Shown in pieces: positions 5,308 to 46,893 of a DNA stretch of 64,000 nucleotides. Under the pieces are notes generated by a model. The model saw only the letters and a list, made by a program, of their open reading frames with translations. It was not told the origin of the DNA and searched no databases. This DNA is from Gymnopus androsaceus JB14 (Eukaryota > Basidiomycota > Agaricomycetes > Agaricales > Omphalotaceae). Position 1 is the first letter of the stretch. Each line of letters opens with the position of its first letter. Both the position numbers and the translations under genes were made by a program. Where the stretch lies: the NCBI GenBank assembly GCA_009733575.1, contig ML769593.1:1-64000 (forward strand), read 5' to 3'.

Positions 5308-6537
5308 ATGCTCGGAAAATACATTTGTTTGAAGGATGTGGTTGATTATATCAACCGTCGGGATGTCAAGCAGAGGTATGGGCTTAAGAAAGGAATCTCG
5401 GAGAAGACTGCACAGAAGTGGATGAAGCACATGGGGTATTGTTGGAAGAAGACACCGAAAGGTCAATATATCAATGGGCATGAACAATATGATGTTGTCT
5501 ATTACCGCCAGACCGAGTTTCTTCCTGCTATGAGTGCACTTGAGCATTGTACATGCTCATGGATCCTCACCCATCTCGATCAGCTTGGTCCTCTTCCTCA
5601 AAATCGTATTATTGTTGTATGGTTTCACAATGAGTCTATGTTTTACGCTAACAACAGACGGAATCTTATCTGGTGTGATCCGAACCTTAAAGCCACACCC
5701 CAACCCAAAGGAGAAGGTCCTCCGCTCATGGCTGCTGACTTTGTCCCGCAAGACTATGGCTGGCTTTGCTCTCATGATGGAAAAAGGAGTGCCCAGGTGT
5801 TATTCAAAGCAGGAAAGGGTCGCAAGGGATATTTTACAAACAAGAACATTCTTGCTCATGCAAAAATTGCCATGGACATTCTCGAAACCAACTATCCTGA
5901 TGAAGAACACATTTTTGTCTTTGATAATGCCACAACACACCGTAAACAAGCTGATAATGCCCTCTCTGCATGTTGCATGCCCAAGTCATCATCTAGTCTT
6001 GATTGGCCCAATTTTGGATGCTCAGTTGATAGTGTCAATGCTGATGGACATCCTTTTCTAGAGACCAAACAGGTAAAGAAGCGGAAGAAGAAGACTGGCA
6101 ATTCTTCTGAGGCAGTATCCTCCACTCCCAAAACCAAGCAGGTCAGGAAGCAAGACTGGATCCCAATGCGTGATACAGTCATTCCTGGCACTGACACTGT
6201 TCAGCATCTTTATTTTCCTCACAATCATCCATCATTGCCAGGCCAGTTCAAGGGAATGGCAGTGCTGCTAGAGGAGCAATGGTTTGTTGCTGAGGCAAAG
6301 TTGCATGCCAAGTGTGCTTTGGACTCAGTTCTGCTTAAAACAATGCACTGGTGAGTTCAGTTTATCATGACTTCATGTTTTTGTGGATCTCACGTCTCTC
6401 TAGATTTGCTCAACGTGCTTGGAAGTTCATTAATGCTTATTGTTGCAGTTTGACTGGTCCGCAGGCAGCTTGGGCAGCCAAGAAGTACAAATGGCACCAC
6501 CAACTTCCAGACTCTATTCTCGACAAACTTGAATGAT
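5308..6537 (+). pseudogene. DDE transposase with D-to-N change and lost catalytic C-terminus
   Basis: From the ATG at 5308 the frame encodes 348 residues. A helix-turn-helix-like start (SEKTAQKWMKHMGYCWKK) is followed by PKGQYINGHE, then WFHNES (residues 105-110), GYFTNKNIL and FVFDNATTH (second Asp at residue 206). In the family the first motif is FHDES, so the first catalytic residue is Asn here (residue 108). After KLHAKC the frame diverges to a TGA at 6352-6354. At 6404-6537 a separate remnant reads RFAQRAWKFINAY ... LTGPQAAWAAKKYK ... LPDSILDKLE, the usual family C-terminus. The block between them, which carries the catalytic Glu, has been deleted. Splicing the obvious intron (6351-6403) would create a stop. 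Inactive transposase. Confidence 0.75.
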
Positions 6538-6898
6538 ATCATTGTCTTGACTAATTATTGCTTATTCTTTGCTTATCTGCTTTTAAAACTCTCTCAATGC
6601 TCTCCTTTGTTCTGTTGCTGCAATGTTCTTTGCCATACAAGAATGTATCATGAACTCACTGTTGCGACCTTATTGCTTGTGTAGTCTAGATTATTATGTG
6701 TAGTTCAATTGATACACTCAATTAAACAAATTTCATGATGCATGAATAGATATTGACATCGAGAACCAACCGAAATGGTCTACTTTTGGTTGACTTTTAT
6801 AGTGTTTTGTTTTGCGGAACTTTTATAGGCCACAAATACTGACAAAAATTATATCAAAATGTAGCTAAACGACATATAATTAAACACCAAATAGGAAT
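6538..6898. other. intergenic, nothing recognised
   Basis: AT-rich sequence between the transposase remnant and the 3' end of the split minus-strand gene. No gene or repeat is supported. Confidence 0.5.
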
Positions 6899-7136
6899 TT
6901 AGCTTGTTCGTACTGTGAGCAAAGATATGAGGTGTTCTTTAGGAGGAGGAGCAAGAAAGCCATCGTCACATTGTGACCACATGGTGCCTGCCAGATCAGC
7001 CTCAGTCAATGGGAGCTCAGTGAAGTACACTGACATTTGGTGTCCATCATAAGTCCCATCAACATAGTAGTGCTTGATCTGCTACTCTTCCACCTCCTTG
7101 GTGGGCTGGATAGCAGTGTACTGGGGTTGGGCAGGT
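6899..7136 (-). pseudogene. C-terminal fragment of an unrecognised gene split by a 14-kb insertion
   Basis: On the minus strand this piece reads QPQYTAIQPTKEVEE, a TAG (7082-7084), then QIKHYYVDGTYDGHQMS ... YFTELPLTEADLAG ... and stops at TAA (6899-6901). It continues in frame from the fragment ending at 21377: removing the insertion and one GGCAGGT duplication restores a continuous HQRKLPAQPQYTA. The protein family is not known to me. The TAG corresponds to a Gln codon after one C-to-T change. That cannot be tested without a homologue. Confidence 0.65.
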
Positions 7137-7384
7137 CAGCTGATTCCACTAAGCCTTTGCCAAATATCCTGATAAGTGTCGGGAAACGTTTTGAAAAATA
7201 TCCTGGTAAAAATAAATCAGTGTTTTCTGGCCATTGAGTGGTAGCTGTGCAAAGTTATGATGCTGATCCTAACCCTAATCCTACTCCTAACCTGGTAATA
7301 GGAGGGGCAAGCCCCTGCACTCCCATTTTTATCCTTAATCCCTAACCTATGCAAACCCAAGGTTTGGCAATGTTTTTTCAGGTA

Positions 7385-7653
7385 TGTCGCATTTAGGATA
7401 TCATATCTTATCTTATTTTACATGTGACTTCCCACATATTGTAGCTAGTTTGCTTGCCTTGCTCCTCAGCCGTTTACCACAATCTGGTCACTGAGGAGTA
7501 AGTCATTTCTCACCTTTCTACATCACATTGTACTTACAGATTATAGTTTCCATTTGTGATATTCTTTCTTTAGGTACAAATATAGCTGTTTACCACAATC
7601 TGGTCGCTGAGGATTTACATTTGTGATATTCTTTCTTTAGTCGGGATCTGACA
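7385..7653 (+). repeat. Copia 5' LTR with internal 67-bp duplication
   Basis: The 269-bp LTR matches the 202-bp 3' LTR except for an extra 67 bases at 7574-7640. The extra block repeats GTTTACCACAATCTGGTC and TTTGTGATATTCTTTCTTTAG from within the LTR, a partial internal tandem duplication. The 5-bp duplication AGGTA lies directly outside. Confidence 0.9.
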
Positions 7654-7664
7654 GGTTATGGGCC
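7654..7664 (+). promoter_or_regulatory. Copia primer-binding site (half-tRNA iMet type)
   Basis: GGTTATGGGCC follows the 5' LTR without a gap. It is complementary to the anticodon region (CAT within GGGCCCATAACC) of initiator tRNA-Met, the same site used by Drosophila copia, which is primed by a half-tRNA fragment rather than by a tRNA 3' end. Confidence 0.75.
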
Positions 7665-7802
7665 TTCCTTGATTCAATTTTCTCGACTAGAGAGGATATT
7701 GCCCAGATTAAATTGGCTCAAATTCTTCAATTCTTTGGTTTCTATGCATCTTCTTGATTCTTTGTCTCTGGTTTTGAGTGGCTTAACCGCGTCGATTCAT
7801 CC

Positions 7803-8928
7803 ATGGATGCATATCATGGTGGATCTGACATCCGTATTGGGTGCGATGCCTCTGGTCCGGGGTAGCGGTGGTCATTATTACTGTCAATGTGTGCATGCCC
7901 ACAATCTTTGCTACACAATGGAGTGTGTCGACAACCCATTTGACCCTCAGGTCCAACACCAACTTCCCACTCTGATTACAAACCACATTCCTCATCCTCC
8001 ACCTGCAGGATTTCCTCCCTCTGCTAGCCAGGGGCAGGCCCTGCCCAGTCATTCTTCCTTGCAATTCCCATTTGAGCACACAAATTTTACTTCCACGGAC
8101 TTTTACAATACTCTCAGTTTTATTCCTGGTAGAAACAACCCATTTGTCTCAACCATCTCAATTGCATATGTCTTTTGCTCCATATAATAATACCTTACCA
8201 ACCTTTCATTCCCAAAGTGTTAACACATTTTCTTCCCCTCATAATTTGCATCATGAGCCAAATAACATCCCTTTACATTATAACATGTATCCTACTGTAT
8301 TGCATGTACCCTCCATGAATCCATCCATGAATCCTTTTCCTATCCACTCTCCTCATGTTCAAATACCGCAACAGCAATATGTACAACATGTCCACTGCCC
8401 AGTACCTACATCCCTTTTCACTCCTGCAGTACCTACAACTTCTCATACCAACAGGATTGCAAACTGGGTTTTGTGCTGCTTCAGCGATGGACATAGACAT
8501 GAACTCTTCTGGCCATGGATCTCACAATCCTTCTCCACTTGCTCCTCCTCCACTTCCACCATGCCCACCCAGTCTTACTGCTGCTTCATCATTCAATGGT
8601 GGATGGGAAGTCCCTCCACAACGTATTGCGTTCACTCCTGACGCTGAACCTACATCCCCTACATTGGATGTGTCTACAACCACATCAATCATGCTAGCAG
8701 GCCTCCTAGCTGCTATCAAAGACACTCTGCTACTCAAGGATGAGAATCATTTGCACAGCGGGACCAGGTGATTGATTAATCATATCATCACCTCTATGCC
8801 CATGGAAGCAACACAGAGAACAATATGGAATATTCCTTCCTATTGACTGGTGGCTTCGTTGAACTCTACACCGCAGGAGATCCGGGTAATAGAAGCTTGG
8901 GATAGTCAGGATGCTGTGATGGTCCAGG
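7803..8928 (+). pseudogene. Copia gag, N-terminal part (degraded)
   Basis: Degraded coding sequence starts at ATG 7803 (MDAYHGGSDIRIG), soon hits stops, and is followed by Pro/His/Ser-rich stretches in shifting frames (for example 8190-8460 and 8490-8771). The last portion, EAWDSQDAVMVQ, ends at the Gypsy insertion point. Removing the Gypsy element with one CAGG copy joins it to ITNRLSKEACGILPP downstream in frame, so it belongs to the same gag. Several frame breaks; non-functional. Confidence 0.65.
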
Positions 8929-9242
8929 TGTCGCGCTTCATACGTGTATGCACGCGTATGACTTCGCGACAAGGCCCTTGTACCATAGATACAAGGCCCA
9001 ACATACTTACCAGCTATCGGTGCTCTCGGACACGTTCCGTTCCTTGTTACTTACCGCACAACCATTCAGTTAGACTGTAGACACATAGGGGATCCGGTAT
9101 GTAGAAAACGAGCATCGATTCGAGATAGAAAGTAGATACAACTTTCCCTACACAATATACCTTCTTTAACCTGCAAACAAACCTGATTAACCCTCTCGAA
9201 CCCGAAGCACATTCACGTCTACGCATGCGAGCAAGCTTTACA
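8929..9242 (+). repeat. Gypsy 5' LTR
   Basis: 314 bp, TG...CA ends, same length as the 3' LTR. It begins with a short palindromic tract (CATACGTGTATGCACGCGTATG) and an ACAAGGCCCTTGT palindrome at about 8970, features shared with the 3' LTR. Confidence 0.92.
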
Positions 9243-9640
9243 ACTGGAGCCCACCGCGAGGGGGTAATCCAGTTTTGTTTGCAAAAACACCCCGTTAATC
9301 CAAAACGCCTTGACCGCGTCGAGAAGGCTTGCGATCGGGTCGTCTCTCACCCGAAACCCAAGAACTCCTCACTGGAATCCAGTCCGCAGAGTTAACCTTT
9401 GCAACATCAGATCTTTTTGAAGCGGTTCCCGACAACGAGGCTACTCACAATAGTTTATCGCTATTGGAACCAGAAACACCTCCTAGTCCCCTTACTCCCA
9501 CTCCTCCAGATACTCCCTCAACACCCAGCTCCTAGTCCCGGAGCTAGTCCATATAACGGGCCGAGTCCATGGTCTGCTCACATACCAAATCCCAATCCAG
9601 TTCCCACTCCAGCTCCAAATCCGACTCCTGCTTCACTCCA

Positions 9641-10960
9641 ATGGCTGCTATACACCCTCTTCCTGCTCGAAACGAGCGCTCAGCTCCTAAATGGGACTCC
9701 GAGTTTGAAGAACAACTCCCAACGTTCTTCGAGGAGTTCGAGGCAGTTGCTACAACTGCTGGTATCAACAACGACGATACGGCGATGAAGAAGGGGGTCC
9801 TCCATTACACAGACCAACAGTCGATGCGGTTTTGGAGGACCCTACCTACCTACGAGGATGCCACGAAAACGTGGACCGAGTTCAAGGACGAGGTCTTGGT
9901 CCGCTATCCCGGTGCGTTGAAAGATGCGGAATCGACGATGGAGGACCTGAGAAAGGTCGTTAGCGAGTACGCCGGTTCAGGAGTTACGAACAGCAAAGAA
10001 CTGCTGACTTACCATCGTGACTTCTCGATCATTGCCAAATCCCTTTTGACCAACAGAATACTTTCCGGGGTCCAAGTTGCCAGCATCTATACCGAGGCGT
10101 TCTCCAAACGATTCGTAATCGCCTAGATACACGACTCCAGGTGAAATGCCCCCAGAAACCCAAAGGACAAGCGTATACACTTACCGAGTTGCGCGAAGCC
10201 ACCACTATCTCCTTTCCGATGCATCAACCACAGTAAAGCCCGGAAATTTTAGTACAGGGGACCGCTCCAAGGTCCCCGTATCCTCTATAACTGCATCAGT
10301 AGCTCCTAAGGTTGAATCAACAGGAGTCGAAGCTGGACCAGTTGTCCCAAGTGGTCGCTTCGTTGACCCAACTAATGACCCAGATGGTCAAAGGTGGCGA
10401 AAGCAGCCCATCTTCATCCAGTAGTGGTTTCCGTCCTCCGAAGCCGAATCGGTCGAATAAGTGCTTTTGGGATAACTGCGACAGCACGAAGTTTGATAAC
10501 TGTGTTGACCTATCGGAATGGGTTAGCAAAGGTCGCGTGGAACGAGACGAAAATGGATTCGTACAGTTGAAAGGTGGCCAGCGTCTTCCTCGTATTCAAC
10601 GATATACGGAGGGTACGTTGAAACAACGCTTCGAACGATATTTCGAAGACCATCCGTCCGAGAAGTCCTGGCTGTTGGAATCACCCCAGGTTACAACGGG
10701 ACCGTTGGCGGGAGTCGACGTGAGTGCCCTACTCATCGTATACTCTACAGGGATTCCAGGGTCCGTCGATGCTTGCAAAGGCAGCGTCGTATATGGCGAG
10801 TCCTGTCGACGAGGAACAACAAGAAGCTGAGGTAATTCGTCAGCTTCTCTTCAAAATGGAAACACGCCGTGCAGCGAAGGAAGCCAACGATAAAGACGTA
10901 CCTGATAAAACGTCGTCGAAGCCTATACCGAAACCCAAACCTAAACCTCCTCCTCGCTGA
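9641..10960 (+). pseudogene. Gypsy gag with zinc-knuckle-like region, frame-broken
   Basis: Starting at ATG 9641 (MAAIHPLPARNERSAPKW), a helical capsid-like domain reads EEQLPTFFEEFEAVATTAG ... TWTEFKDEVLVRYPG ... LLTYHRDFSIIAKSLL, stopping at TAG 10124-10126. A second frame (10312-10830) begins with Gln/Ser-rich sequence and holds CFWDNCDSTKFDNC, a Cys-rich motif in the zinc-knuckle position. A third frame (10724-10960) continues with EEQQEAEVIRQLLFKMETRRA and a KPIPKPKPKPPPR tail. The order matches one gag frame broken by at least two frame changes. Gag would form the virus-like particle and bind RNA. Confidence 0.7.
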
Positions 10961-11897
10961 TCCTGAGCCTTCCCAGCCGATTCCTCCTGTTCCTGGTCCA
11001 ACGAGACCGCCGAAGCCTATCATAGGCAAACTTCCCCCCAATTACGTCCCTCCGCAGGAAAGGACGGTTGGCGTCCCTCCAAAGGATGACGTCCGTAACT
11101 TTCGATACCGAGCACCTATAGAGACCGAGGCTGCTGTTGAACGAGTTGTTCAGGCAGGACTCTCGAGCGTGGTTTCTATTCGACAGGATGATCTATTAGC
11201 AATCGCTCCAGAATACAGAAGAAGAGTGAAAGAAAATGTAACGAGCCGTCGTATCGGAATCGACGGAAATCTTTTGGAAGATATTGAGCCGACTTACCTT
11301 TTGGAATCGTCAAAATCACTGTCCCCGAGTAGATCTCAGTACTGTGAGAATAACTCCCTCCCTTTTGCTCTGAAAGATCCTCCAGATCCGGTAGCAGTTT
11401 TCTTCCAGGAATTCGGAGATGCGGTAGAAGGAGATGGTTTCTACGTTGCAAAGGAATCAGCCAGTATTCGAGGAATAAACGCCCTCATTGGAGAACGTTC
11501 TGTCCATTGTGTTGCGGACAGTGGGTGCAGCATAGTGGCCATGTCGGACGCAACTAGCAACGCGTTAGGACTTTCATTCGATCCGAAAAGACGTATCCCG
11601 CTACAGAGCGCGAATGGTAAGACGGACTGGACACTAGGAACTGCGAAGGACGTACCATTCCGTTTCAACGACATTATTGCGTTCTTGCAGGTCCATATCG
11701 TCGACTCTCCCGCATACGACGTCTTGTTAGGCCGTCCATTCGAGATCCTAACCCAAGCCCATATTAAAAACTTCCTCTCCGGCGATCAGCACTATACGCT
11801 GACCGACCCCAATACCGACAAGGTGGTCACCATTCCTACGATCCCTCGAGAGCTTCCGCGATTTCGCAAGGAAGACGGAAGGGACAGAAGCTATTGA
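10869..11897 (+). CDS. Gypsy protease region of pol
   Basis: An open frame of about 340 residues. After a Pro-rich lead, the sequence HCVADSGCSIVAMSDATSNALG has the retropepsin active site (D-S-G) at nt about 11517-11525, and AYDVLLGRPFEI near 11717 is the flap/C-terminal LLG motif of retroviral-type aspartic proteases. The frame ends at TGA 11895-11897, and RT follows in another frame. In an intact element this would probably be fused with RT. Confidence 0.75.
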   Translation: MQRRKPTIKTYLIKRRRSLYRNPNLNLLLADPEPSQPIPPVPGPTRPPKPIIGKLPPNYVPPQERTVGVPPKDDVRNFRYRAPIETEAAVERVVQAGLSSVVSIRQDDLLAIAPEYRRRVKENVTSRRIGIDGNLLEDIEPTYLLESSKSLSPSRSQYCENNSLPFALKDPPDPVAVFFQEFGDAVEGDGFYVAKESASIRGINALIGERSVHCVADSGCSIVAMSDATSNALGLSFDPKRRIPLQSANGKTDWTLGTAKDVPFRFNDIIAFLQVHIVDSPAYDVLLGRPFEILTQAHIKNFLSGDQHYTLTDPNTDKVVTIPTIPRELPRFRKEDGRDRSY

Positions 11898-11913
11898 GGA
11901 AAGAGAGAGGGGG

Positions 11914-14900
11914 GTGGCTTATACCCTCGAGCCAGCGCCACCGCCCCCGACGATGGTGGAGTTTGAAGACTTGAACGATGGAGATGAAGTCCTGGTGGCC
12001 GTTGAGGTGCACGAGGCACCGCTGGCATTGGACTTATCAAACATCAGCGCTAATATCTCAATATCCCTTAGATCCGAGGTCCTCGGTCCGGAACCGAGTT
12101 CCGATCAAATTAGCTTGGCGTTCTTTCACGCCCACGCTTTCTTCTCTTACGATTCAACAACGTACGCGTCGATTCTTCAGTGTTCAGCTGTTCCAGCCTC
12201 ATTCATTAATTCCCCCAGTCTCTCTTCTTCCTGTTCCACTCTAGGGTCCCTCCTTCCTCACCTCCCTTCACAATATAGTTGTCTACCTTTAACTCCCAAT
12301 GAAAATTCTATACCAATTCCCATATTTGCTGCCGCGAAGAAGCGTTACAGGCCAGTACACCGGCGTACTGTTCCTGTGCCAACAACTCTGCCCGAGAAAT
12401 TCCGAATAATTCGCCATTTTCCAACGGATCCGCTCGAAGATCTTCCCATACTCAATCCAATTCCGCCATCTTTCACTCCCACTGGACGTTATACCCAAGA
12501 ACGTAAAGACGTTATTGACAGCGTTCACGACCACGCTTTCCTATGGCCGGAAGAAATGAAGGCAGTCCATCATCTAATGATGCTTCAGGAGGGTGCATTT
12601 GCATGGAACGAAATGGAAAAAGGTCAATTTAAACATGAGTACTTCCCTCCTGTGGAAATTCCTGTCATTGAACACATACCCTGGCGTGTGCCGGTCCTCC
12701 CGATTCCCCCAGGTCTAATGGACGAGGTCATTAAAGTAGTCAAGGATAAAATTCAATCTGGCATTTACGAGCCGTCGAATTCGTCCTATCGGTCCCGTTG
12801 GTTTACAGTGGTTAAGAAAGATGGAAAGTCGCTGCGAATCGTTCATGATTTGCAGCCTCTGAACGCAGTCACGATTCGTGATTCATCAATTCCGCCAGTC
12901 TTGGAGCACCTAGCAGAATGGTATGCGTGCCGGGCAGTTCTTGCAGCGCTGGATATCTTTGTAGGTTATGATGAACGTTCCCTGGCCATCTCCTCCCGCG
13001 ATCTCACAACATTCCAAACCCCTCTTGGTCCTTTCCGTCTAACTGCTATTCCCATGGGTTGGACAAACTCCGTCCAAATATTCCACGGAGACGTCACCTT
13101 CATTAATCAACCTGAAATCCCCGAATTCACCATTCCCTATTTGGAACGACGTTAATGTTTGTGGCGGTCCTACTCGCTACGAACTCCCGGATGGCTCGTT
13201 CGAGACAATTCCGGAGAATCAGGGAATTCGTCGATTCATCTGGGAACACCTCCAGGTGGTCAACCGTATTCTCCAACGTATGAAGTATGCTGGGGGTACG
13301 TATTCTGGTCCGAAGGCCATCATCGCGGCGTCTGAAGCCCTTATTACTGGCCACCTCTGTTCCTACGAAGGTCGTAAAATTGACAAATCGCGGGTGGCGA
13401 AAATTGTCAATTGGGGTCCTCTACTTAAGCTCACAGATGTCCGGGCATTCCTAGGTACCACGGGTCTTTGCCGGAACTTTATTGAGAGGTTCGCCGAGTT
13501 GGCTGAACCTTTGACTCGGTTAACGAGACGAGATATCCCTTTCCAGTTCGGGGAACTGGAAGCCCGTACTCAACAATGCTTAAAGGACGCGGTCCTTTCA
13601 AGTGGTGCTATCCGTCCTCTGGTCTATGTGTCCGGCATCCCAGTCATTCTTGTTGTCGATACCTCAAATATCTGCATTGGTTTTATAATCATGCAGCCCT
13701 CTCCCGATAATCCCTCAGTCCGCTATATCAATCGTTTTGGATCCATTACTTTAAATTCTCGTGAAGCTAATTACAGTCAGGCCAAGCTGGAACTTTACGG
13801 CCTTTTCCGTTCCTTACGTGCAACTCGTCTATGGACAGTTGGTGCGAAACACTTCGTTGTTGAGGTAGACGCACTCTACATCCGTGGGATGATCAATAAC
13901 CCCGATATCCAGCCCAACGCAACTATAAATTGTTGGATTGCTGGGATTTTACTCTTCAACTTCACAATGTTCCATGTCCCTTCTGAGCGTATCGCTGCGG
14001 ATGGCGTTTCACGCCGTACTCCTCAACCAAACAATGATCCTGAAGATGATGGTGACCATGAAGACTGGATAGACCGTGCAAACGGGTTTATTCATTTTAT
14101 TAACTTTTCTGTCTTTCAACCTTCCTCCCTCAACAGACTTTCAACCTTTCCGGTATTTGCCACCGAGTCTATTTCCTCTCCGCATTCATCTTCGGATGAA
14201 TTTATCCCTTACGAGTCTATTCCGCGGTCAAAACAGGCTATTCGCGTGGATTCACGTATGGATTCCGTGCGGGAATACCTCTCATCCCTCCAACGACCAG
14301 AGGGTCTTTCCGATGACCAGTTCTCTGGTTTTATTCGATATTGTCTACATTTCTTTGTTGACAAGTCGGGACGCTTATGGCGCAAAGATGTCAATGGCTG
14401 TCACTGCCTGGTAATCCCTCAAGCTCGTCGAATTCCCATTATTCGGGAATGTCATGACTGAATGGGTCACAAGGGTATTTGGTCCACCATGGCATCCATC
14501 CGTGAACGTTTCTGGTGGCCAAACTCAACGAAGATGTCAAGTGGTACATCCGTACGTGTCACCTCTGTCAACTCCGTCAAACGGAGAAGCTCCGTATCCC
14601 TCCAGTGGTTGCAGAACCACTCAGTTTATTTTCAAAGTGCTACATGGACACGATGGAGATGCCATCCTCTGGTGGCTTCAAATATATTGTCCATGGCCGC
14701 TGCTCTTCCTCCGCATATCCCGAGTTCTGCAAATTGCGATGCCAGACAGGCGATGCAATTGCTACTTGGATTTTCGAGTCAATCATCTGCCGTTGGGGTG
14801 CTTTACGAGAAATCGTTACGGATAACGGTACTCCTTTCCTTAAGGCCCTCGATGTCCTCGCGAAACGTTATGGCATCCGTCACATTACAATTTCGACGTA

Positions 14901-15613
14901 CAACTCCCAGGCAGCTGGTGTTATTGAACGCCGACATCTCAATGTCAGAGAAGCTTTGGTCAAGTCTGCTGACGGGGATGCTTCCAAATGGTCTCCGGTT
15001 TCTGCCTCAGTCTTTTGGGCTGAAAGAGTTACGGTACTCCGTTCTGTAGGTGCGAGTCCGTATTTCTTAGCCCACGGTGTTCATCCCACTCTTCCCATCG
15101 ATCTCCTTGAGGCTACATACCTCCTTCCTCCTCCTACTTCCACCATGACCACAACGGATCTTATTGCATGACGGTCTCGCGAACTTCAAAAGTGTCTCGA
15201 AGATCTCGAGGATATGCGCCTCCGCGTTTACGGTAAACGGCTCGATTGGGTTCGCAAGGTTGAGTTGGAGCACGCTGCTTCAATCAAAACCTACGATTTT
15301 GTCCCTGGAAACCTCGTTTTAGCTCGCAATACGCGTGTCAAGACTCGAGAAGAACAATATGCGCTACATGGGACCCTTGATGGTTATACGCCGTAACCGC
15401 GGTGGAGCTTACATTGTTTGTGAGCTCGATGGTACAGTTTGGCGTCGCCCAGTTGGGGCGTTTTGCCTTATTCCCTATCTCTCTCGTTTATCTCTCCCTC
15501 TTCCGGACCTGGACGACTTCCTCGATATCACGACGACGGAGTTAACGGACCTGGAGGGCTCGTTTGACGAGGACCCCGAGGAATCTCCGACTGTTGAGGG
15601 TTCGGAGTTGTAA
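11914..15613 (+). pseudogene. Gypsy reverse transcriptase, RNase H and integrase (frame-broken)
   Basis: RT: RSRWFTVVKKDGKSLRIVHDLQPLN, AALDIFVGYDE and PLGPFRLTAIPMGWTNS are RT blocks. The YLDD active site is destroyed by one extra A at 13145-13146, after which DVNVCGGPTRYE continues in another frame. RNase H region: VDTSNICIGFIIMQ ... YSQAKLELYGLFRSLR. TGA at 14459-14461 lies just before the integrase GHKG. Integrase: a zinc motif ending CHLCQ, catalytic residues YMDTMEM, TDNGTPF and IERRHLNVREAL all present, but a missing A at 14521-14523, TGA at 15169-15171 and a frame change near 15350 break it. The C-terminus (YMGPLMVIRRNRGGAYIVCELDG) ends at 15613. Confidence 0.88.
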
Positions 15614-15652
15614 TTTTTGCTTTACTTTAATTTACGCTGAGATTTAATTGAC

Positions 15653-16290
15653 AAAGTTCTACACATCCCCTTCCTCTCCGTTTCCTGTACGTTCAATCAC
15701 ATTCCAAGCAGCAACAATTCCATTTCTACCTCCCCCAGCTCTTTTGAACACATCCTCAATCGTCTTCCGTCCAGCCACATCCCCATATTCAACGCCAAAC
15801 CAGGTGGAGTCCGTTTCACCATCCATGGGGTGTTCACTATAGTGAGCATTCACAAACTGGATGCATTCCCGAAGATTGGAGTGCGTGGTGAACCTTCGAA
15901 GAAGTTCAGACCAATCCGTTTGCAAAAATCCCAACACTCACTTCAAAATACGCACGTCCTCCATCTAAAAATAACGACGGGAACGGCTCGGGTCAAGCCA
16001 TAATGCCTGGGCATTGACTTCTCGACGTGGATTGCACTTTCCGTAATCTCGGCGGGGAGCAACTTGAGGGTTTGCCCATCCATCGTGTGCAAATGGGAGA
16101 AGAAATCCTTTGGGTACACAGGGACGTCCCCGCTTTCAAAACCAGCCTGTCGGATAAATCCTTCGAGTTGGATTATTGACCAACCGAGCATGAAGGTGTT
16201 GTGGGCGTTCCGGTTTTCCTCCCATTTGTCCAGAAGGGTATCGAATTGTTCACGGAGATACAGGTACAGGGATTCACGTTCGCTGGTCAT
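15653..16290 (-). pseudogene. antisense accessory ORF between Gypsy pol and 3' LTR
   Basis: On the minus strand ATG 16290 opens MTSERESLYLYLREQFDTLL, continuing with NAHNTFMLGWSIIQLEGF, PVYPKDFFSHLHTMDGQ and KLLPAEITESAIHVE. A short intron-like or frame-broken interval follows (about 15925-16010). Then another frame gives ELLRRFTTHSNLRECIQFVN, PMDGETDSTWFGVEYGDVA, TIEDVFKRAGGGRNGIVAAW and NVIERTGN, ending near 15655. Composition is protein-like over about 190 residues. I do not recognise the family. Its place, opposite to pol and just before the 3' LTR, resembles antisense extra ORFs known in some plant Gypsy elements. Confidence 0.6.
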
Positions 16291-16395
16291 GATGGTGTGT
16301 ACTTGCCGACTTTCTACTTCATATATATACATTTTTTTTTTCTTTTCTGTTTGTCTTTCTTTTTTGCTCCGCTTGGTCCCCCGTGTTTTCATTTT

Positions 16396-16410
16396 AAAGT
16401 AAAGAGGGGA
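16396..16410 (+). promoter_or_regulatory. Gypsy polypurine tract
   Basis: AAAGTAAAGAGGGGA lies directly before the 3' LTR, the expected place for plus-strand priming. Confidence 0.7.
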
Positions 16411-16724
16411 TGTCGCGCTTCATACGCGTATGCATGCGTATGACTTCGCGACAAGGCCCTTGTACCATAGATACAAGGCCCAACATACTTACCAGCTATC
16501 GGTGCTCTCGGACACGTTCCGTTCCTTGTTACTTACCGCACAACCATTCAGTTAGACTGTAGACACATAGGGGATCCGGTATGTAGAAAACGAGCATCGA
16601 TTCGAGATAGAAAGTAGATACAACTTTCCCTTCACAGTATACCTTCTTTAACCTGCAAACAGACCTGATTAACCCTCTCGAACCCGAAGCACGTTCATGT
16701 CTACGCACGCGAGCAAGCTTTACA
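16411..16724 (+). repeat. Gypsy 3' LTR
   Basis: 314 bp, about 97.5% identical to the 5' LTR by eye. Followed by CAGG, the second half of the target duplication, and then by Copia gag sequence. Confidence 0.92.
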
Positions 16725-16728
16725 CAGG

Positions 16729-17133
16729 TCATCACTAACCGCTTATCAAAGGAGGCTTGTGGTATCTTACCTCCAGCCCTGGACCCTTTGGCTGGTTTAC
16801 CTGCCACAGCACGCGACTTCTACTTAGCCCTTTGAACTCAGTATTGCTTGCACTGGCAATCTACTGGCTTGGCTATTCTTGAAGCGAAATTGCATACGAC
16901 TTGTATTGAAGGGGGTAACATTCCAGAATGGATTGTTAAATGGAAATTGACTGTGGGACGACTCCAAGCTGCTGCGTATCCCATTGTCTGGTTGACCATC
17001 CAATCTACCTTTGCTCAACTACTACCTCCCAATGGACCATGCTCTCATGTTGCCCACGATATCTGTAAACATATTGACCACCCAGATCTCTTCCCTCACA
17101 AACCACTTAACTATAACACCTTCCAATCCTATA
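16729..17133 (+). pseudogene. Copia gag, middle part
   Basis: The reading frame resumes directly after the Gypsy element: ITNRLSKEACGILPPALD ... PATARDFYLAL, then a TGA at 16833-16835, then TQYCLHWQSTGLAILEAKL, IPEWIVKWKLTVGRLQAA, NGPCSHVAHDICKHIDHP and NYNTFQSY, where MITE B interrupts it. These helical segments are typical of UBN2-like gag of Agaricomycete Copia elements. Confidence 0.7.
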
Positions 17134-17881
17134 CAGCTGATTCCGCTAAGCCTTTGGCAAATATCCCGATAAGTGTCCAGGAATGTTTTGCAATTTGGCC
17201 CGATAAAATTGAATCAGTGTTTTCTGGCCATTAAGTGGTGGCTGTGCAAAGTTATGATGGTGATCCTATTAGGTAAGCCATTCTTTAGCCTTTCTGATGC
17301 TTTACGTAAGGTCCGATCAATTTTTACAGCCGCTGTGGCCATGCCAAATTTGGCAATTTTATATCTCAAGAACGAGGCATCGTGGGAAAAAACTGACACC
17401 CCCCCTTGGATTTGTCAGACCATCCCCTATCCAACCCTGACCCTAACCCTAACCCTAATCCCACTCCTAACCTAGTAATAGCGGGGGCAAGCCCCCGCAC
17501 CCCCATTTTTATCCTTAACCCCTGACCCTAACCCCAACCCCTAACCCCTAACCTATGCGCACTGAAGGTTTGGCAATGTTTTGATCAGTTCTCTATGTTA
17601 GGGTTCGCACAAGTGCGAACCCTAACGAGAACTGCTCAAAACATTGCTTTTTCAGGTAACCCTAATTAACCCTAATTCTGATATTTGCCAAATATTTTGT
17701 GATATTTTCACTGTTTTTGACGAATATTTTGCAAAGAATCCAAAGTTCTGCCCCCTATCAGAATATTTGGCAAATAGTCTTCTAGGGCAATTTTTTTTTT
17801 CTTTGATTTTATCGGGTCAAATTGCAAAACGTTCCCCGACACTTATCGGGATATTTAGCTTAAGACTAGCAGCATCTAGTG
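17134..17881. mobile_element. MITE B, second copy of the MITE A family, nested in Copia gag
   Basis: 748 bp, CAGCTGATTCC...GCATCTAGTG, flanked by TCCTATA at 17127-17133 and 17882-17888. Inverted subterminal blocks carry AAATATCCCGATAAGTGTC and CAATTTG(G/A)CCCGATAAAAT. Deleting it with one TSD joins NTFQSY to TAKVQAAYKNDKH of gag in frame. The interior holds CCCTAA-type tracts (about 17427-17460 and 17516-17553), a CCCCCGC hairpin, and a 73-bp hairpin absent from MITE A. Confidence 0.88.
17574..17646. repeat. 73-bp telomere-like hairpin inside MITE B
   Basis: Outer arms CAATGTTTTGA and TCAAAACATTG, middle arms CAGTTCTC and GAGAACTG, and a central perfect stem GTTAGGGTTCGCAC / GTGCGAACCCTAAC (17597-17626, two-base loop). 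MITE A has only CAATGTTTT followed by TTCAGG at this position, so the hairpin is extra to this copy. Confidence 0.85.
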
Positions 17882-17888
17882 TCCTATA

Positions 17889-18361
17889 CTGCCAAAGTCC
17901 AAGCTGCCTATAAAAATGATAAACATTTGAAGGAGATCCAAGGCAAGCAGGACAACTCAACTAGCAGCCACAGTGGTAATCAAAATGGCCACAGTGGCTG
18001 GAAGGCACGTAATGGGGGTGGTCGGGATGGTGCCAATTCAGCTACTTCTGCCACAGTTGATGGGGGTGGCACCAATGGGGGTGGTACACATAGAGAACCG
18101 AATACTAATACCGGCCAAGAACATGGGCTGAGGGCTAATATTGTATCAACTTCTGTTTTGGAGCAGAACAAACTTGGAAACATAGGTACTACATCTGTAT
18201 CAGCTATCTTCCCAAACAAAGACATCCATATTTCCTCATATCCAATGTGTACACCTAAGCCTTTACCTACCTCGACATACACCTTGGACAATCTTTGGAA
18301 ATCCGATGGATTTGCATTTGCTACAATCATTGGCGGATATTCTACGCTCTCTTATTGGTGA
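17889..18361 (+). pseudogene. Copia gag C-terminus and truncated linker
   Basis: TAKVQAAYKNDKHLKEIQG continues gag after MITE B, followed by Ser/Asn/Gly-rich sequence (GGRDGANSATSATVDGGG) and a linker ending NLWKSDGFAFATIIGGYS. No CCHC knuckle or D-S/T-G protease motif is present, so the gag-protease-integrase junction appears deleted. Confidence 0.6.
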
Positions 18362-20905
18362 TGCCGCCACATCCTACATCAGCACAAAAAATATCAATAA
18401 ATGTCCCCAGGCATATGAACACCTTGTTTTGACTGTGAACGAATGGGAACAATTTAGTGGGGAATGTACTGGTGCATTGCGCGCAGATGGTGCAAAGGAA
18501 TTTCATGACAAGAAAATTGATGAATTCTTACACAGGCGGGGAATCTCTGACGCGTCCACAGCCCCGTATGCTCATTGGCAGAATGGGAAAGCTGAACGTT
18601 GGATTCGACAAGTGCAGGACATGGCGATGGTCCTATTACAGGCATTAGGCCTGCCTATGTCCTTTTGGGGTGATGCTGTTGACACAGCAGCTTACATTGT
18701 CAAGCGTCTACCCACTTCAGTGCTAGATGATGATGTTACTCTCTACGAAAAGATGCACAAGATAAAGCCTGACTACTCCATTCTCCAAGTATGGGGGTGC
18801 CAATGCTACTTTTGGGTTGCAAAGGAGAGATAATGGAAACTTGGACCGAAATACACTGAGGGTATTTTTGTTGGCTATGAGAACTCTGGGTATAGGATTC
18901 GGGATCTCAATGGAGCTTACCATGTCATTCCACATGACTGTGTCATCTTCAACAAAAATGAGTTTGGTCGGCTCAAGGCTCCAAGGTTGAAACGCACTGT
19001 CAACTGGGATCCTTCCCTTGACCCTCCTACTACCACAATCGAAGCAGATCTTGCTGAGTGGGATACCTATGTATCTAAGCTTCGGTCTCAATGCCAACAG
19101 TCAACTCTCCCAATCCAATCATATGCTGCATTAGGTAACTTTGTAGCTTATACCTTGGCTGAAGACCTGGTCTCCAAAGCACTGGAACTACCCTCCGATG
19201 AACCTTCTGATTTTGCGAACACTCCTGATACAATTGTACTACCCAACAACTTGACTCAAGACTCTCCAATTTACCTTGCCGCTCCTGCTCTTTGATTCCG
19301 TCACGCAGATGAATCCCAACCTCGTTGCTTGTGCAAAGAACTTTTACAATGCAGCAATAAGGACCGCTGGTTAACTGCAGAGGGAGATGAACTGGCAGGA
19401 CTTCAGAAATTAGGCATGTACTCTATGTCAACACTGCCACAGAATCGGAGACCAATTGTTCCTAAATGGGTCTATAGCTGGAAGCTCAACTCAGAAGGGG
19501 CTATTGTAAAGGCCAAGGCTCGCCTAGTTGGTTTCACTCAACGCCCGGATGACTATGGAAAAACATCTTCTCCTGTAGCACGTGTATCTGGGATCCGACT
19601 CCTTCTTGCAATGGCTGCTCGCCTCGATTGGGAACTATTCACCTTTGATGTGAAACAAGCATTTCTTAATGCTCCCCTAAAAGAGGAAGTTTATCGCCAA
19701 CAAATTCCGGGTTATGAGCTGAGGACCATACATTGGTTCTCCGACTCCATTGTGCACTATATGGTCTACATCAAGCAAGTTATGCTTGGTACTGTACTCT
19801 CCGCAATGCTATTGAGAGTATTGGATTACGCCGGAGTGAAGTAGATCATGCTGTTTTTGTTGGTTATTGGGAACAACCCCCTGATTCCCTGATAGAAATG
19901 CCCACCAATGGTTTGCCTCTTCAGCTAATTATCCCAGTTCATGTCAATGATGGTCTCAGTGCCTGCAACTCTACACCTCTATACCTTTGGTTCATGCATA
20001 TGATCAACAAATTCTTTGAAGTTGAAGATCTTGGTACAGCGTCCATCTTCCTTGGTATGAGGATTCACCGGGATTGGACAAAGAAGGAGCTCTACATTGA
20101 CCAAGCTGCATATATTCTTGATCTGCTTGAACAACACAACATGGTGGGGGTGCAAAACTCAATCTGTTCCAATGACCAAAGTGCTTCATAAACTGGATGA
20201 CAATGTCAACACCAATGCATGCCCTGATATCTTGCGGGAAAACTGGATGGTTTTCTACCAGGCTTTGGTAGGTTCATATAATTGGCTAGCCGTCATATCT
20301 CATCCCGATTTTTCATACACGGCATCATTGCTGGGAACGTATAACTCCAAACCAGCGTTTAAACACATGGTGTTGGCCAAATGTGTCCTTCAATACCTGG
20401 CTGGGACAATTGAATGGGTTCTGGTTCTAGGAGGGAACCAACTGTGCTCATTCAGAACATTCCCCCCTCTATATTTGCAATATTTCTATTTGGCAGTCTA
20501 GTTTTGTGGTCTTCCAGCAAACAAAAGATGGTTGCCCTATCCTCTACTGAGGCCAAATGCATGGCGCTGACACACATTCTTAAAGAACTTCTGTGGTTCC
20601 GTCTCTTCACCACTGACCTTCAGATCCACCTACCTATCCCATTCCCTTTACTTTCAGACAATCACTCCGGAATCCAAATCGCTAACAACAACTCCACATC
20701 CACAAATGCAAAACATATTGATATTAAATTTCACTTCATTCGCTCTCATGTCTCAAAGGGAGATTTTGACATTCACTGGATTCAAACTTCGGATACGGTT
20801 GCTGATGTCTTCATAAAGCCCTTACAGCATGAGTTACATACAAAACATAGTTTACGTCTTGGTTTGACTCCTTTTTCATCTCTTCATATTTCTGACTGTT
20901 CTTGA
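18333..20905 (+). pseudogene. Copia pol: integrase, reverse transcriptase, RNase H remnants
   Basis: Integrase: ALRADGAKEF (second Asp) and WQNGKAERWIRQVQDMA (Glu) are present; the first Asp is missing. TAA at 18831-18833 after VAKER and TGA at 19293-19295 interrupt the linker. RT: WVYSWKLNSEGAIVKAKARLV ... DVKQAFLNAPLKEEVY, a frame change near 19730, then LHCALYGLHQASYAW. The active site is HVNDG (about 19940), where Copia elements have (Y/H)VDDG, so one catalytic Asp is Asn. RNase H: SSKQKMVALSSTEAKCMAL and SDNHSGIQIANN ... TNAKHIDIKFHFIR are present, but its N-terminal part is lost. Ends at TGA 20903-20905. Confidence 0.85.
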
Positions 20906-20935
20906 TCCTACTTACAGAATCTGTCTCTTTGTAGC

Positions 20936-20947
20936 CCAAGGGGGATG
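20936..20947 (+). promoter_or_regulatory. Copia polypurine tract
   Basis: The purine-rich run AAGGGGGATG precedes the 3' LTR. Confidence 0.6.
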
Positions 20948-21149
20948 TGTCGCATTTAGGATATCATATCTTATCTTGTTCTACATGTGACTTCCCACAT
21001 CTTGTAGCTAGTTCACTTGCCTTGCTCCTCAGCCATTTACCACAATCTGGTCGCTGAGGAGTAACTCATTTCTCACCTTTCTACATTGCATTGTACTCAC
21101 AGATTGTAGTTTCCATTTGTGATATTCTTTCTTTAGTTGGGATCTGACA
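20948..21149 (+). repeat. Copia 3' LTR
   Basis: 202 bp, TGTCGC...CTGACA, followed by AGGTA (target duplication) and then the right half of MITE A. It differs from the 5' LTR at about 13 positions and lacks its 67-bp duplication. Confidence 0.9.
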
Positions 21150-21376
21150 AGGTAACCCTAGTTAACACCTGATACTGATATTTGCCAAACCGTGACTTCA
21201 GCACTTCCTGTTTTTGACAAATATTTTGCAAAGAATCCAAAGCTCTGCTCCCTATCAGAATATTTGGCAAATAGTCTCCTGGGCAATTTTTCTTTCTTTA
21301 ATTCTATTGGGTCAAATTGCAAAACATTCCCCAACACTTATCAGGATATTTTGCTTAAGAATAGCAGCATCTAGTG

Positions 21377-22990
21377 GGCAGGTAGTTTGCGCTGGTGGGT
21401 TGTAGTTGAGCCACTGGCAGTGGGCAAAGACTGGTGTTTTGAGATTTTCAGTTTCTTGAGAGGGGAGGGATTGGAAGGGTGATGATCAATGGTTTGAGAG
21501 GAAGATGAGGCCTCAGGGTTTTGCAGGTGGTCATGCTGGCATTGGAGGCTACGCTGGTCATGCATTGAGATAGCCAATGCCCTAAGCATCTGTTGGGCCT
21601 CTTTGTTATCATTGGTGGCGGCTATGAACCCTGGAGCAATGTTCCAATGGGAACGAGAGGTAGATTCTCCATCTGAGAGAGTGGAACCAAAGAAAAGGTT
21701 GACCTCATCTACTACGTCGTCTTCAAACTTGAATTCACTATTGTCAACAAGGACCGCAGCCTTAGGTTTGCCCTTCCCTTTCCCTTGCACTTTGCCTTTT
21801 TTTCTTTCCTCCAGCAGGCTTGGGGGTGGAGTGGGCATTGGCTCCAGGCTCAGGCTTGGTTTCAACTGTTTCAGTGCTAGGAGGGACTGTACACTGGTAG
21901 TGATGGACACGGGTCCGGATCCAGGTATACCTGGATCCAACAGACAGGTACCTGTGGCCTCAAAGGGCTGACCTGTGACCTGCCCTGAAAATATCCCAAA
22001 GGATGACCTGTGACCTGTGCCAGATCCATGGGAAACAGGTACTGGGATCTGGACTCATGTCCATCATTACTGTACAGTGTGGTGATTAGTTCCAATGACA
22101 GACATGTTGGGGTGAAGCAGCTTACTTACGTGGGGAAATAGCCTTAGACTTTCCTTTGTGTTGGGCTTTGCTAGGCTTGGGTGGATGAACAATAGTAGAA
22201 CCAGTGTCAGGTTCATCTGGTTCAGGTGCGGGTTCCAAAGAGATAGCCTTGGAGTGTGACCTACTTGTAGGCGCTGAAAAAAATGGTCTGGAAAATACTG
22301 GTGGTCTAAATTATTAAGGCTGGTTCATGAGCAAACAAAGGTCACGCAAAATCTTGAGTGGGGAACATCTGTATCAATTGTATATCTATAGCTTGAACCT
22401 AAAAAACAGGGAGGCAAAGACTGTGAATTATGGAACAGAAGCTAATCAACAAGGAAGGGTTTATTTCCCGGATCATTTTTTTGGCGCCTACAAGTAGTGT
22501 TGCAATGAGCAGCCAACTGACTAGTTCTGGTGTGACATTGTTCTCTGCATCTGCTCTCCCATTAGCCTCAGCAATCTTCTCCTTCTTTGTGCCTTTCTGC
22601 TCAAGTTGGACCCTCATGGTAATGGTCTGGTCCTGAGGATAGTCTGTTTTGGGCTGCAACAAGGGGACAATGGCATTGGGGATGGGAGGAGCATGGATGC
22701 TACCCTCTAGACCACTGTGGTCAGCTAGTGCATCAAGTGCTAAGATAGTAGAGTTGGAGGGTGAGGCAGCTCTGCTGCTGTTAGGTTACCCATCCAAGGC
22801 CATCTCGACAGACAAAGAGGGAGGTTGGGTGGATTGGTTGGCAGCGGTGTCCTCAGGAGACTTTGCAGGTTCCTTGGAGGTAGATTTGGAGCAGGTCATG
22901 GTAGGGCAAGTAGTTGGTTGTAGGATAGTTCTGGTGCAGTGGCTCTGGTATAGTGGCAAGAGAGGGCTGGGGACAACTTTGGTACTCAAT
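21377..22990 (-). pseudogene. N-terminal and middle part of the unrecognised gene split by MITE A
   Basis: Minus-strand reading from about 22990: a Ser/Pro/Thr-rich region (KSTSKEPAKSPEDTAANQS), TAA at 22786-22788, then in the same frame PNSSRAASPSNSTILALD, RVQLEQKGTKKEKIAEANG and VTPELVSWLLIATLL. An intron follows (about 22400-22487). Then SLEPAPEPDEPDTGS, a basic KGKSKAISPR, and after an intron holding the 21897-22070 MITE the last exon LKPSLSLEPMP ... KGKGKPKAAVLVDN ... NLFFGSTLSDGES ... HQRKLPA, which runs into MITE A. The C-terminus lies at 6899-7136. Mostly disordered and basic, probably nuclear; no known domain. Its length and Gln/Ser content resemble transposon-associated accessory proteins, but that is a guess. 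Confidence 0.55.
21897..22070. mobile_element. 174-bp MITE with 8-9 bp TSD
   Basis: Ends GTAGTGATGGACA / GTAATGATGGACA (inverted), continuing as an imperfect inverted repeat (GTCCGGATCC / GTCCAGATCC). Flanks TGTACACTG (21888-21896) and TGTACAGTG (22071-22079), 8 of 9 identical. Confidence 0.75.
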
Positions 22991-46000: not shown

Positions 46001-46893
46001 TCAACCACTGATAACTAAAGTTGAACGTTTGGTTGTAGAATACGCGCTGAACAGCGACGATATCTGTCGACATACATTATCAGCACAGTAGAAGGAAACC
46101 TCAAAATAGAGAACGAGCCTGTGGCATAAGCTGACTGGTAACCGACTGTAGCCATGATCGTAATGAGGACCTAGACAAGCATAAGCACATTCAGGATGTC
46201 GTTCACGACAAAGTGTAACTTACGTGCTCCTTGATGGTGAAAGGTCCAGGATTCAATTCGATACCAAACACTTTGACTTTTGGAACGAATCTGGCCCACG
46301 CACGACCGACAGGGAAAGCAAGCAATTGTGCCACAAGACCAGTAATTGTGACCGATGGAAACCGGAAAAAGAAGAACTGGTTGAGTCCCTAGGAATCAGT
46401 AAAGCTCCCAATTAGTATCCGGTTTCCTTTTTTTCGGAAGACATGTCCGCTCACAGGGATCACGACTGGAATATGGTCACTTGGTCAACAACAGGAGAGC
46501 AGACGGACAAAGCGGAAAAGACGAACTGGCCCAGATAAATCCGATGAACCACGCCCGGAGTGAACTGACGGGGAGGGATGGGTCATCCGTGTTCGCCACA
46601 GCAGATCTAACCTCGGGATAGGGAGAATCATCCTCTGTGGTCTTTAATTGAGCTTAGACTCAATAAAAAGGGAAAAATAGAACCAACCTAGTACTCCTTC
46701 GATGGCAGCGTCCTTGTCGATATTAGGATCATCGAAATCGGGAATGGCGATTGCTTCGACAGCCTCTGAAGTGAAGTGGGACTATGAGTATATGGGACTA
46801 TGGTACATCGTTCGGAAAGTCACCTATGTCGTCCTGGGCGAGCCCCTTCTCGGGGTCTGCAAAATCTGCGCTCTGCTTTTCTTCAAGCGACAT
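43030..46893 (-). CDS. OPT-family oligopeptide transporter
   Basis: Many short exons on the minus strand. Start [17 protein letters not shown] (ATG 46893), exon 2 [20 protein letters not shown], exon 3 [21 protein letters not shown]. Hallmarks: the [10 protein letters not shown] motif (about 46215-46250), membrane segments [57 protein letters not shown], and the family C-terminus [15 protein letters not shown] ... TPPPEGFG (TAA 43030-43032). I see no frame break. OPT proteins import tetra- and pentapeptides (some transport glutathione or metal chelates) with protons across the plasma membrane, using about 14-16 helices. Length about 780 residues, usual for the family. The only large, clearly cellular gene in the window. 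Confidence 0.85.

What the first reader, a model, noticed from the sequence alone, without database searches (positions are those of the whole stretch)
6899..22990. Four-layer nested insertion with every target duplication readable
Seen directly: a minus-strand gene is split by MITE A (TSD GGCAGGT); MITE A is split by a Copia (TSD AGGTA, 7380-7384 / 21150-21154); Copia gag is split by a Gypsy (TSD CAGG) and by MITE B (TSD TCCTATA). Removing each insert with one TSD restores continuous reading: VQ|ITNRLS, FQSY|TAKVQ, RKLPA|QPQY. LTR divergence, about 13/202 for Copia against 8/314 for Gypsy, agrees with the nesting order. This gives a relative clock for element activity at one locus.
Basis: seen in the sequence. 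Interest (0 to 1): 0.75.

Follow-up and report, generated by a model that had tools for sequence, protein, structure and literature searches.

The report
Nested mobile elements in a mushroom
Four mobile elements landed one inside another at this spot of what is probably a mushroom genome, which is an ordinary kind of event, but one of them carries a conserved backward-facing gene with an intron that deserves a look.

Summary
The nested structure is real. All four target duplications are exact: GGCAGGT (MITE A), AGGTA (Copia), CAGG (Gypsy), TCCTATA (MITE B). Related copies in the same 83-Mb genome provide uninterrupted sites for the three inner insertions; flanks overlap by exactly the duplication length at the Gypsy and MITE B sites. 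The outer "gene" is not supported: no homologue was found for the piece searched, no second copy, and the reading stops at the 16th codon past the junction.

The LTR clock points the right way but is weak (13/202 against 8/314, p = 0.039; p = 0.16 without CpG-type changes).

Most interesting is a two-exon antisense gene between Gypsy pol and 3' LTR. It is broken in the window, but follows 16 of 18 pol matches that reach the 3' end of the query, with dN/dS 0.12-0.23 in seven pairs. Its intron is missing exactly, in frame, in one copy. Antisense extra ORFs are known in plant Gypsy elements and reported for Botrytis. Verdict: an ordinary nested stack with an unusual passenger gene.

The parts
7137..7384 (+). 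MITE A, left part (starts CAGCTGATTCC; ends with the first AGGTA)
   Evidence: TSD GGCAGGT 7130-7136 / 21377-21383; 86-90% identical stretches in other family copies
21150..21376 (+). MITE A, right part (starts with the second AGGTA; ends CATCTAGTG)
   Evidence: other MITE copies read through the Copia site
7385..21149 (+). Copia element with its nested inserts; 5' LTR 7385-7653, 3' LTR 20948-21149; TSD AGGTA 7380-7384 / 21150-21154
   Evidence: LTR alignment, 13 substitutions in 202; RVT_2 domain in ORF 19296-19844
18349..18350 (+). point in Copia pol where 711-713 nt are missing relative to paralogues C512 and C339
   Evidence: the stretch in C339 holds Pol_BBD and gag_pre-integrs domains
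8929..16724 (+). Gypsy element; LTRs 8929-9242 and 16411-16724; TSD CAGG 8925-8928 / 16725-16728
   Evidence: 8 substitutions in 314; gag-asp protease, RT_RNaseH, sub-threshold rve; absent from C339 and C512 at this site
15943..16290 (-). exon 1 of an antisense gene (aORF) of the Gypsy; frame broken near its end in this copy by small deletions
15659..15893 (-). exon 2 of the antisense gene, after an inferred intron of about 50 nt
17134..17881 (+). MITE B (748 nt), TSD TCCTATA 17127-17133 / 17882-17888, same family as MITE A
   Evidence: absent from C339 and C512 at this site
21898..22071 (.). repeat C inside the outer region (ends TAGTGATGGACAC / GTCCATCATTA), internally shorter than the 8 relatives looked at; duplication not resolved
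   Evidence: 25 related matches among scored candidates
22262..22496 (.). repeat D inside the outer region (inverted ends CTACTTGTAGGCGC); no clear target duplication in 12 copies looked at

Best explanation
This is a stack of successive insertions in what is probably an agaricomycete genome, and each step is an ordinary transposition. A 7-bp-TSD element (MITE A) inserted into single-copy sequence; a Copia element inserted into MITE A; then a Gypsy element and a second, younger member of the same MITE family (MITE B) each inserted into the Copia gag region. Shown: the four exact duplications and related uninterrupted sites for the Copia, Gypsy and MITE B insertions. Inferred: the MITEs were moved by a KDZ transposase whose elements share the ends of this family, and the Copia lost about 712 nt of pol after insertion or moved with help. 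The Gypsy belongs to a clade most of whose scored copies carry a two-exon antisense gene between pol and the 3' LTR. Purifying selection on it is indicated by codon-position bias and dN/dS; splicing is inferred from frames and GT/AG; its role is inferred to be regulatory or accessory to retrotransposition.
For: Four exact duplications. C339 and C512 empty at the Gypsy and MITE B sites, flank overlap of exactly 4 and 7 bp. 14 of 15 MITE sequences read through the Copia site. LTR divergence order and nearest-copy divergence order. Exact 7-bp TSD in 7 of 10 other two-ended copies and in the 3796-nt relative at C283. A family member (C218, L048) shares 72 of 75 terminal nt with the KDZ + CxC2 locus C453, which is collinear with a second KDZ locus, C843. 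Antisense gene after 16 of 18 pol matches that reach the 3' end of the query.
Against: No empty site for MITE A itself: no paralogue or second strain of the outer locus was available. The far ends and duplications of the two KDZ loci were not found. The window MITEs themselves match the KDZ ends only at 51-56 of 76 positions; random window stretches reached 51 against C453, so the link runs through other family members. Repeated-region misassembly cannot be excluded without reads. The LTR clock fails once CpG-type changes are set aside.
Confidence: 0.94

Rival explanations
1. The pieces were brought together by rearrangement or assembly error, not by successive insertions.
For: The region is repeat-rich and the assembly has 934 contigs; no reads or second strain could be examined.
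Against: Each of the four insertions has an exact duplication, the MITE ones of the length seen in 7 of 10 other copies; flanks overlap by exactly the duplication length at related uninterrupted Gypsy and MITE B sites; the Copia site is uninterrupted in 14 of 15 MITE sequences.
Confidence: 0.03
3. The antisense ORF of the Gypsy is not a gene but an open frame that survives by chance in young copies.
For: The window copy and C58b, C103 and C256 are broken; no Pfam match and no confident fold match.
Against: Exon-1 dN/dS 0.12-0.23 in seven pairs of open copies (pairs share copies, broken copies left out); third-position bias; protein similarity down to 27% with 20 invariant columns in 10 sequences; intron at the same place while exon 1 is 376 nt in 4 of 6 close copies; a gene model annotated across both exons in Gymnopus androsaceus.
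Confidence: 0.07

Closest known systems
Nested LTR retrotransposons (1491 nested pairs in 12 plant genomes, PMC6911290; only the start of the abstract seen, in the listing)
   Same: Elements inserted in elements; younger inside older.
   Different: Small fungal genome; two members of the same MITE family sit at different levels of one stack.
Kyakuja (KDZ) DNA transposons of Agaricomycotina (PMC12730594, passages and section 3.2.1 seen)
   Same: 7-bp duplications, 5'-CA..TG-3' termini; family ends on loci coding KDZ and CxC2 domains; an upstream ORF with a sub-threshold Tet_JBP match.
   Different: The MITEs and the 3.8-kb relative have inverted ends, while the two Laccaria families described have none; no complete autonomous element was delimited here.
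hAT7 transposons of rust fungi (PMC12730594, passages seen)
   Same: 7-bp duplications.
   Different: Reported from Puccinia and Melampsora; no listed hAT domain lies within 10 kb on the element side of the 49 ends.
Antisense additional ORFs (aORF-3R) of plant Gypsy elements such as Grande, RIRE2, Retand (PMC7264820 and PMC11963269, passages seen)
   Same: Between pol and 3' LTR, antisense to gag-pol, present in most copies, function unknown.
   Different: No match to any Pfam family (TRP28 included); has an inferred intron; about 200 aa in a probable agaricomycete.
Boty-like Gypsy of Botrytis cinerea with antisense gene brtn (Zhao et al. 2011; seen only as a citation and mentions in PMC7264820, PMC8365987 and PMC4227169)
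   Same: Fungal Gypsy element with an additional antisense gene.
   Different: Sequence not compared here; another phylum if the host is an agaricomycete; whether brtn has an intron or is related was not tested.

Membership tests
Ty1/Copia LTR retrotransposon | LTRs with TG..CA ends, short duplication, RVT_2 reverse transcriptase | tested here: met
   LTRs and AGGTA; RVT_2 E 6.6e-25
Ty1/Copia LTR retrotransposon | complete protease and integrase region | tested here: not met
   711-713 nt of pol missing against two paralogues; a defective copy of a Copia family, not another kind of element
Ty3/Gypsy LTR retrotransposon | LTRs TG..CA, protease, RT/RNase H, then integrase | tested here: met
   rve (26.2 bits, cut-off 32.6) and Integrase_H2C2 (21.7, cut-off 25.5) are below their Pfam cut-offs
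KDZ (Kyakuja-type) DNA transposon, non-autonomous | 7-bp target duplication | tested here: met
   A, B, C283 and 7 of 10 other two-ended copies exact; the C418 copy has one mismatch
KDZ (Kyakuja-type) DNA transposon, non-autonomous | 5'-CA..TG-3' termini | tested here: met
   CAGCTG..CTAGTG; exceptions: L054 and L052 start with TA, and L052 ends in AG as placed
KDZ (Kyakuja-type) DNA transposon, non-autonomous | same ends on an element coding a KDZ transposase | tested here: inconclusive
   one end shared at C453 (72 of 75 nt with family member L048; 54-56 of 76 with B and A) and C843 (51-52 of 76 with B and A), collinear with KDZ and CxC2; far ends not found
KDZ (Kyakuja-type) DNA transposon, non-autonomous | no terminal inverted repeats (as described for two Laccaria families) | tested here: not met
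   inverted ends in A, B and the 3.8-kb relative; hence filed as KDZ-linked, not as Kyakuja
hAT7 | hAT transposase with the same ends | tested here: not met
   0 of 49 terminus sites have a listed Dimer_Tnp_hAT match within 10 kb on the element side or 6 kb outside (150 of 237 candidates scored)
antisense aORF of Gypsy elements | ORF antisense to gag-pol between pol and 3' LTR, conserved in most copies | tested here: met
   16 of 18 pol matches reaching the 3' end of the query (40 of 54 candidates scored)
antisense aORF of Gypsy elements | antisense transcription | not testable with these tools
   no RNA data

The most novel reading that the evidence does not exclude
A clade of agaricomycete Gypsy elements carries an ancient, selected, intron-bearing antisense gene of a protein family with no known relatives outside it. 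Its spliced antisense mRNA can itself be reverse transcribed back into the element, as the exact in-frame loss of the intron in the C256 copy suggests. The protein would be an accessory regulator of retrotransposition, working like the antisense genes of some retroviruses.
Probability: 0.3. Interest if true: 0.65.

Novelty: new variant of a known kind. Interest (0 to 1): 0.42.

Why it matters
The stack itself is a clean example but an ordinary one; it shows two pulses of one MITE family on either side of a Copia insertion. The antisense gene matters more. Because gag-pol RNA is the template for new copies, an antisense intron survives retrotransposition and so marks which transcript was copied. 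A copy that lost it exactly is a testable sign that the antisense mRNA was also reverse transcribed. The 7-bp MITE family gives a handle on which transposase serves non-autonomous KDZ-type elements.

Tried and rejected
Outer gene as a known host gene: rejected for lack of evidence. The right-hand piece matched none of 91 candidates, two pieces have no Pfam family above cut-off, and only a 71-nt stretch at C83 resembles the left piece.

Autonomous partner in the 3.8-kb C283 element: 704-nt inverted arms at 97.3% identity and an exact CACTCAC duplication, but no transposase-sized ORF between them; so KDZ loci near the ends were examined. C418 turned out to be an 848-nt MITE next to a rearranged KDZ piece and is not used for linkage; C311 has KDZ on the outer side. 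With C418 dropped the proximity is not significant (P 0.082); collinearity and the 72-of-75 end are the better evidence. The KDZ list was truncated, and 150 of 335 candidates were scored.

hAT parent: no listed hAT domain near the 49 ends.

TET/JBP gene upstream of KDZ at C843 and C453: only sub-threshold (PF12851, E 0.13 and 0.16); no PDB support. The HxD..H reading is recalled.

Recent capture of the antisense gene by this Gypsy: rejected, because divergent copies carry it at the same place. Structure: P0001 model mean pLDDT 71, no PDB or viral match at E <= 0.001; P0005 model too poor to use (pLDDT 51). PHROGs: none for P0001 and P0005.

Duplications of repeats C and D: not resolved.

Literature: none of the listings showed, by title and start of abstract, a paper on antisense genes in basidiomycete Gypsy elements; I read passages of only four of the papers on this matter. 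The library is open-licence PMC, so this is weak evidence of absence.
Full report
WHAT IS THERE. The window is 64 kb of a 121-kb contig (C211) of an 83.3-Mb assembly in 934 contigs. The host is probably an agaricomycete. KDZ and Plavaka transposase pieces occur in the window, and a protein recorded from Gymnopus androsaceus JB14 (P0005) is 92% and 93% identical to the two exons of the antisense gene of a Gypsy copy at C820 in this genome; Gymnopus is in Agaricales, Omphalotaceae.

DUPLICATIONS AND BOUNDARIES. MITE A is 7137-7384 plus 21150-21376, with GGCAGGT on both sides. The Copia is 7385-21149, with AGGTA. The Gypsy is 8929-16724, with CAGG. MITE B is 17134-17881, with TCCTATA. All eight duplication copies match exactly. 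The Copia 5' LTR (269 nt) has a 67-nt extra stretch relative to the 202-nt 3' LTR.

RELATED EMPTY SITES. Two Copia paralogues at C339 and C512 (65-77% identical pieces) are continuous where the window has the Gypsy and MITE B. Aligning the two window flanks apart to each paralogue, they overlap by exactly 4 nt at the Gypsy site and exactly 7 nt at the MITE B site, in both paralogues. For the Copia, 15 MITE sequences (14 of 17 fetched copies, and MITE B) were tested: 14 read through the site (L056 gave no match), 11 of these with one intact AGGTA; five (L041, L042, L044, L045, L055) have the very sequence of MITE A around it. For MITE A no empty site was found in this genome.

MITE A and MITE B are one family (85-86% identical stretches), so this family was active before the Copia insertion and again after it. 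MITE B has a sister copy at 98-99% (C216), while MITE A's nearest fetched copies are at 86-90%, in line with the order. The paralogues C339 and C512 have 713 and 711 nt of pol that the window copy lacks at 18349/18350. In C339 this stretch carries Pol_BBD and gag_pre-integrase domains, so the window Copia is defective, and a stop codon interrupts the gag piece right of the Gypsy. Two further repeats, C (21898-22071) and D (22262-22496), lie in the outer region.

THE OUTER GENE. The right-hand piece has no homologue at E <= 0.001 among 91 candidates; the left piece was not searched that way. Neither of two pieces tested has a Pfam family above cut-off. The tail of the left piece has one relative at C83 (71 nt aligned to 77, 84% identical, a 6-nt indel), which leaves a decayed gene possible but unproven.

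THE CLOCK. Differences are 8 of 314 (Gypsy) and 13 of 202 (Copia); two-sided Fisher p = 0.039 and K2P 0.026 against 0.068. 7 of 8 and 11 of 13 are transitions (and the tail), and 5 of 8 and 7 of 13 are of CpG type (the thirteenth Copia difference, in the LTR tail, was classed by eye, because the script misaligned that tail by one base). Without the CpG-type ones it is 3/314 against 6/202, p = 0.16. The order rests on the nesting itself, not on the clock.

THE MITE FAMILY. Of 17 fetched copies, 14 were scanned for ends and 10 had both located; 7 have an exact 7-bp duplication, one has one mismatch (L051), one has two (L048), and one has none as placed (L052). A 3796-nt relative at C283 has CACTCAC exactly on both sides and 704-nt inverted arms, but no transposase-sized ORF between them. 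A terminal pattern gave 49 sites in the genome against 0 for the backward control. Among listed KDZ matches (161 in all, list truncated), KDZ lies within 5 kb on the element side of 3 of the 49 (C418, C453, C843) and on the outer side of one (C311); 0.47 expected, P = 0.012 for three. C418, however, is a separate 848-nt MITE beside a KDZ piece, and for two P = 0.082. Listed hAT domains lie near none of the 49. C453 and C843 are collinear from the shared end through CxC2 and KDZ domains although only 67-69% identical inside. Over the terminal 75 nt the family member at C218 (L048, itself 76% identical to MITE B over its length) matches C453 at 72 of 75. MITE A and B match it at 56 and 54 of 76, and C843 at 52 and 51 of 76; 300 random window stretches against the C453 end averaged 36 and reached 51. 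The link of A and B to KDZ thus runs through other members. Kojima (PMC12730594, section 3.2.1 and passages) reports 7-bp duplications and CA..TG termini, without inverted repeats, for two Kyakuja families of Laccaria, and 7-bp duplications for a hAT7 lineage in rusts. I file the family as KDZ-linked and not as Kyakuja proper, because the no-inverted-repeat feature is not met and the far ends were not found.

THE ANTISENSE GENE OF THE GYPSY. Between pol and the 3' LTR lies a minus-strand gene: exon 1 15943-16290 and exon 2 15659-15893. In the window copy, small deletions break it near the end of exon 1. Five close copies (C58 twice, C7, C103, C316) carry it; exon 1 is 376 nt in four of the five, the fifth (C58b) is frameshifted, and C103 has two stops. 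A protein search of the genome found 24 pieces in 19 loci; 16 of 19 lie on the opposite strand 341-675 nt past a Gypsy pol match (which used 29 of the 48 rows); the other three (C286, C251, C24) are on contigs without a row. Counting the other way by eye (54 candidates, 40 scored), 18 pol matches reach position 3400 or beyond of the 3601-nt query, and 16 are followed by the gene; C173 and C69 are not.

SELECTION AND INTRON. Exon-1 dN/dS (NG86), seven pairs of open copies: C58a/C7 0.18, C58a/C316 0.23, C7/C316 0.21; C218/C96 0.12, C218/C809 0.13, C96/C809 0.14, C820/C789 0.17. The pairs share copies and are not independent; C58b, C103, C256 and the window were left out as broken. Differences lean to third positions (for example 28 of 53 for C58a/C316 and 37 of 56 for C218/C96; 7 of 12 for C58a/C7). 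Ten exon-1 sequences down to 27% identity share 20 invariant columns. A putative intron of roughly 45-55 nt, starting with GT and ending with AG, lies at the same place in the other copies whose junction was read (C58 twice, C7, C316, C103, C145, C218, C96, C809, C789, C820 and the window); C286, C61, C30, C251, C119 and C24 were not read. The Gymnopus protein P0005 is annotated across both exons, with a later start and a slightly different exon-2 start. In C256 the intron is absent exactly and in frame (YFGNGQFTTHN against YFGED-R-FTTHS). The deeply divergent C789/C820 lineage has the intron, so loss in C256 is the simpler reading. C256 has a frameshift in exon 1, so this is one event from one decayed copy.

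HOW IT MAY WORK. An antisense intron is not removed when the sense genomic RNA is copied, so it persists through retrotransposition. Exact loss would need reverse transcription of the spliced antisense mRNA and recombination back into the element (inference). Exon 1 and four related proteins have no Pfam match at E up to 10, P0001 and P0005 no PHROG, and the model of exon 1 (pLDDT 71; helices, then a strand pair of low confidence) has no confident fold match. The profile search found six proteins at E <= 0.001 in 5.8 billion, among 468 candidates. Function is inferred from analogy only: plant antisense ORFs between pol and 3' LTR (PMC7264820, PMC11963269, passages) and the Botrytis brtn gene (cited there; original not seen).

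VERDICT. Observation confirmed, interpretation partly supported. The stack is ordinary. The antisense gene is a new variant of a known kind and carries most of the interest.

Noticed in passing
window 15659-16290, minus strand; L083-L087, L098-L104: Two-exon antisense gene in the Gypsy clade, under purifying selection, with an intron lost exactly in one copy (C256).
   Followed up: yes
G000 C843 (L094, L096) and C453 (L095, L097): KDZ + CxC2 loci with the MITE-family end; an upstream ORF has sub-threshold Tet_JBP similarity in both.
   Followed up: partly
G000 C283:33794-37589 (L079, L092): 3796-nt non-autonomous element with 704-nt inverted arms at 97.3% identity and an exact 7-bp duplication, sharing the MITE ends.
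   Followed up: partly
G000 C58:248962-261230: Two Gypsy copies appear to lie in tandem sharing an LTR (inferred from match positions).
   Followed up: no
L038 (C339) 6452-8239: The C339 Copia paralogue carries its own insert of about 1.8 kb near the end of gag.
   Followed up: no
window 22262-22496: Repeat D has clear inverted ends but no evident target duplication in the 12 copies looked at.
   Followed up: partly
G000 C820 and C119: MITE-family ends directly abut the same internal Gypsy point at three places, suggesting an insertion that was then amplified with the Gypsy.
   Followed up: no
window 62906-63577 (-), 32232-32810 (+), 2673-3221 (-), 44489-46076 (-): KDZ transposase piece, Plavaka transposase piece, integrase-like rva_4 domain, and OPT transporter pieces.
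   Followed up: no
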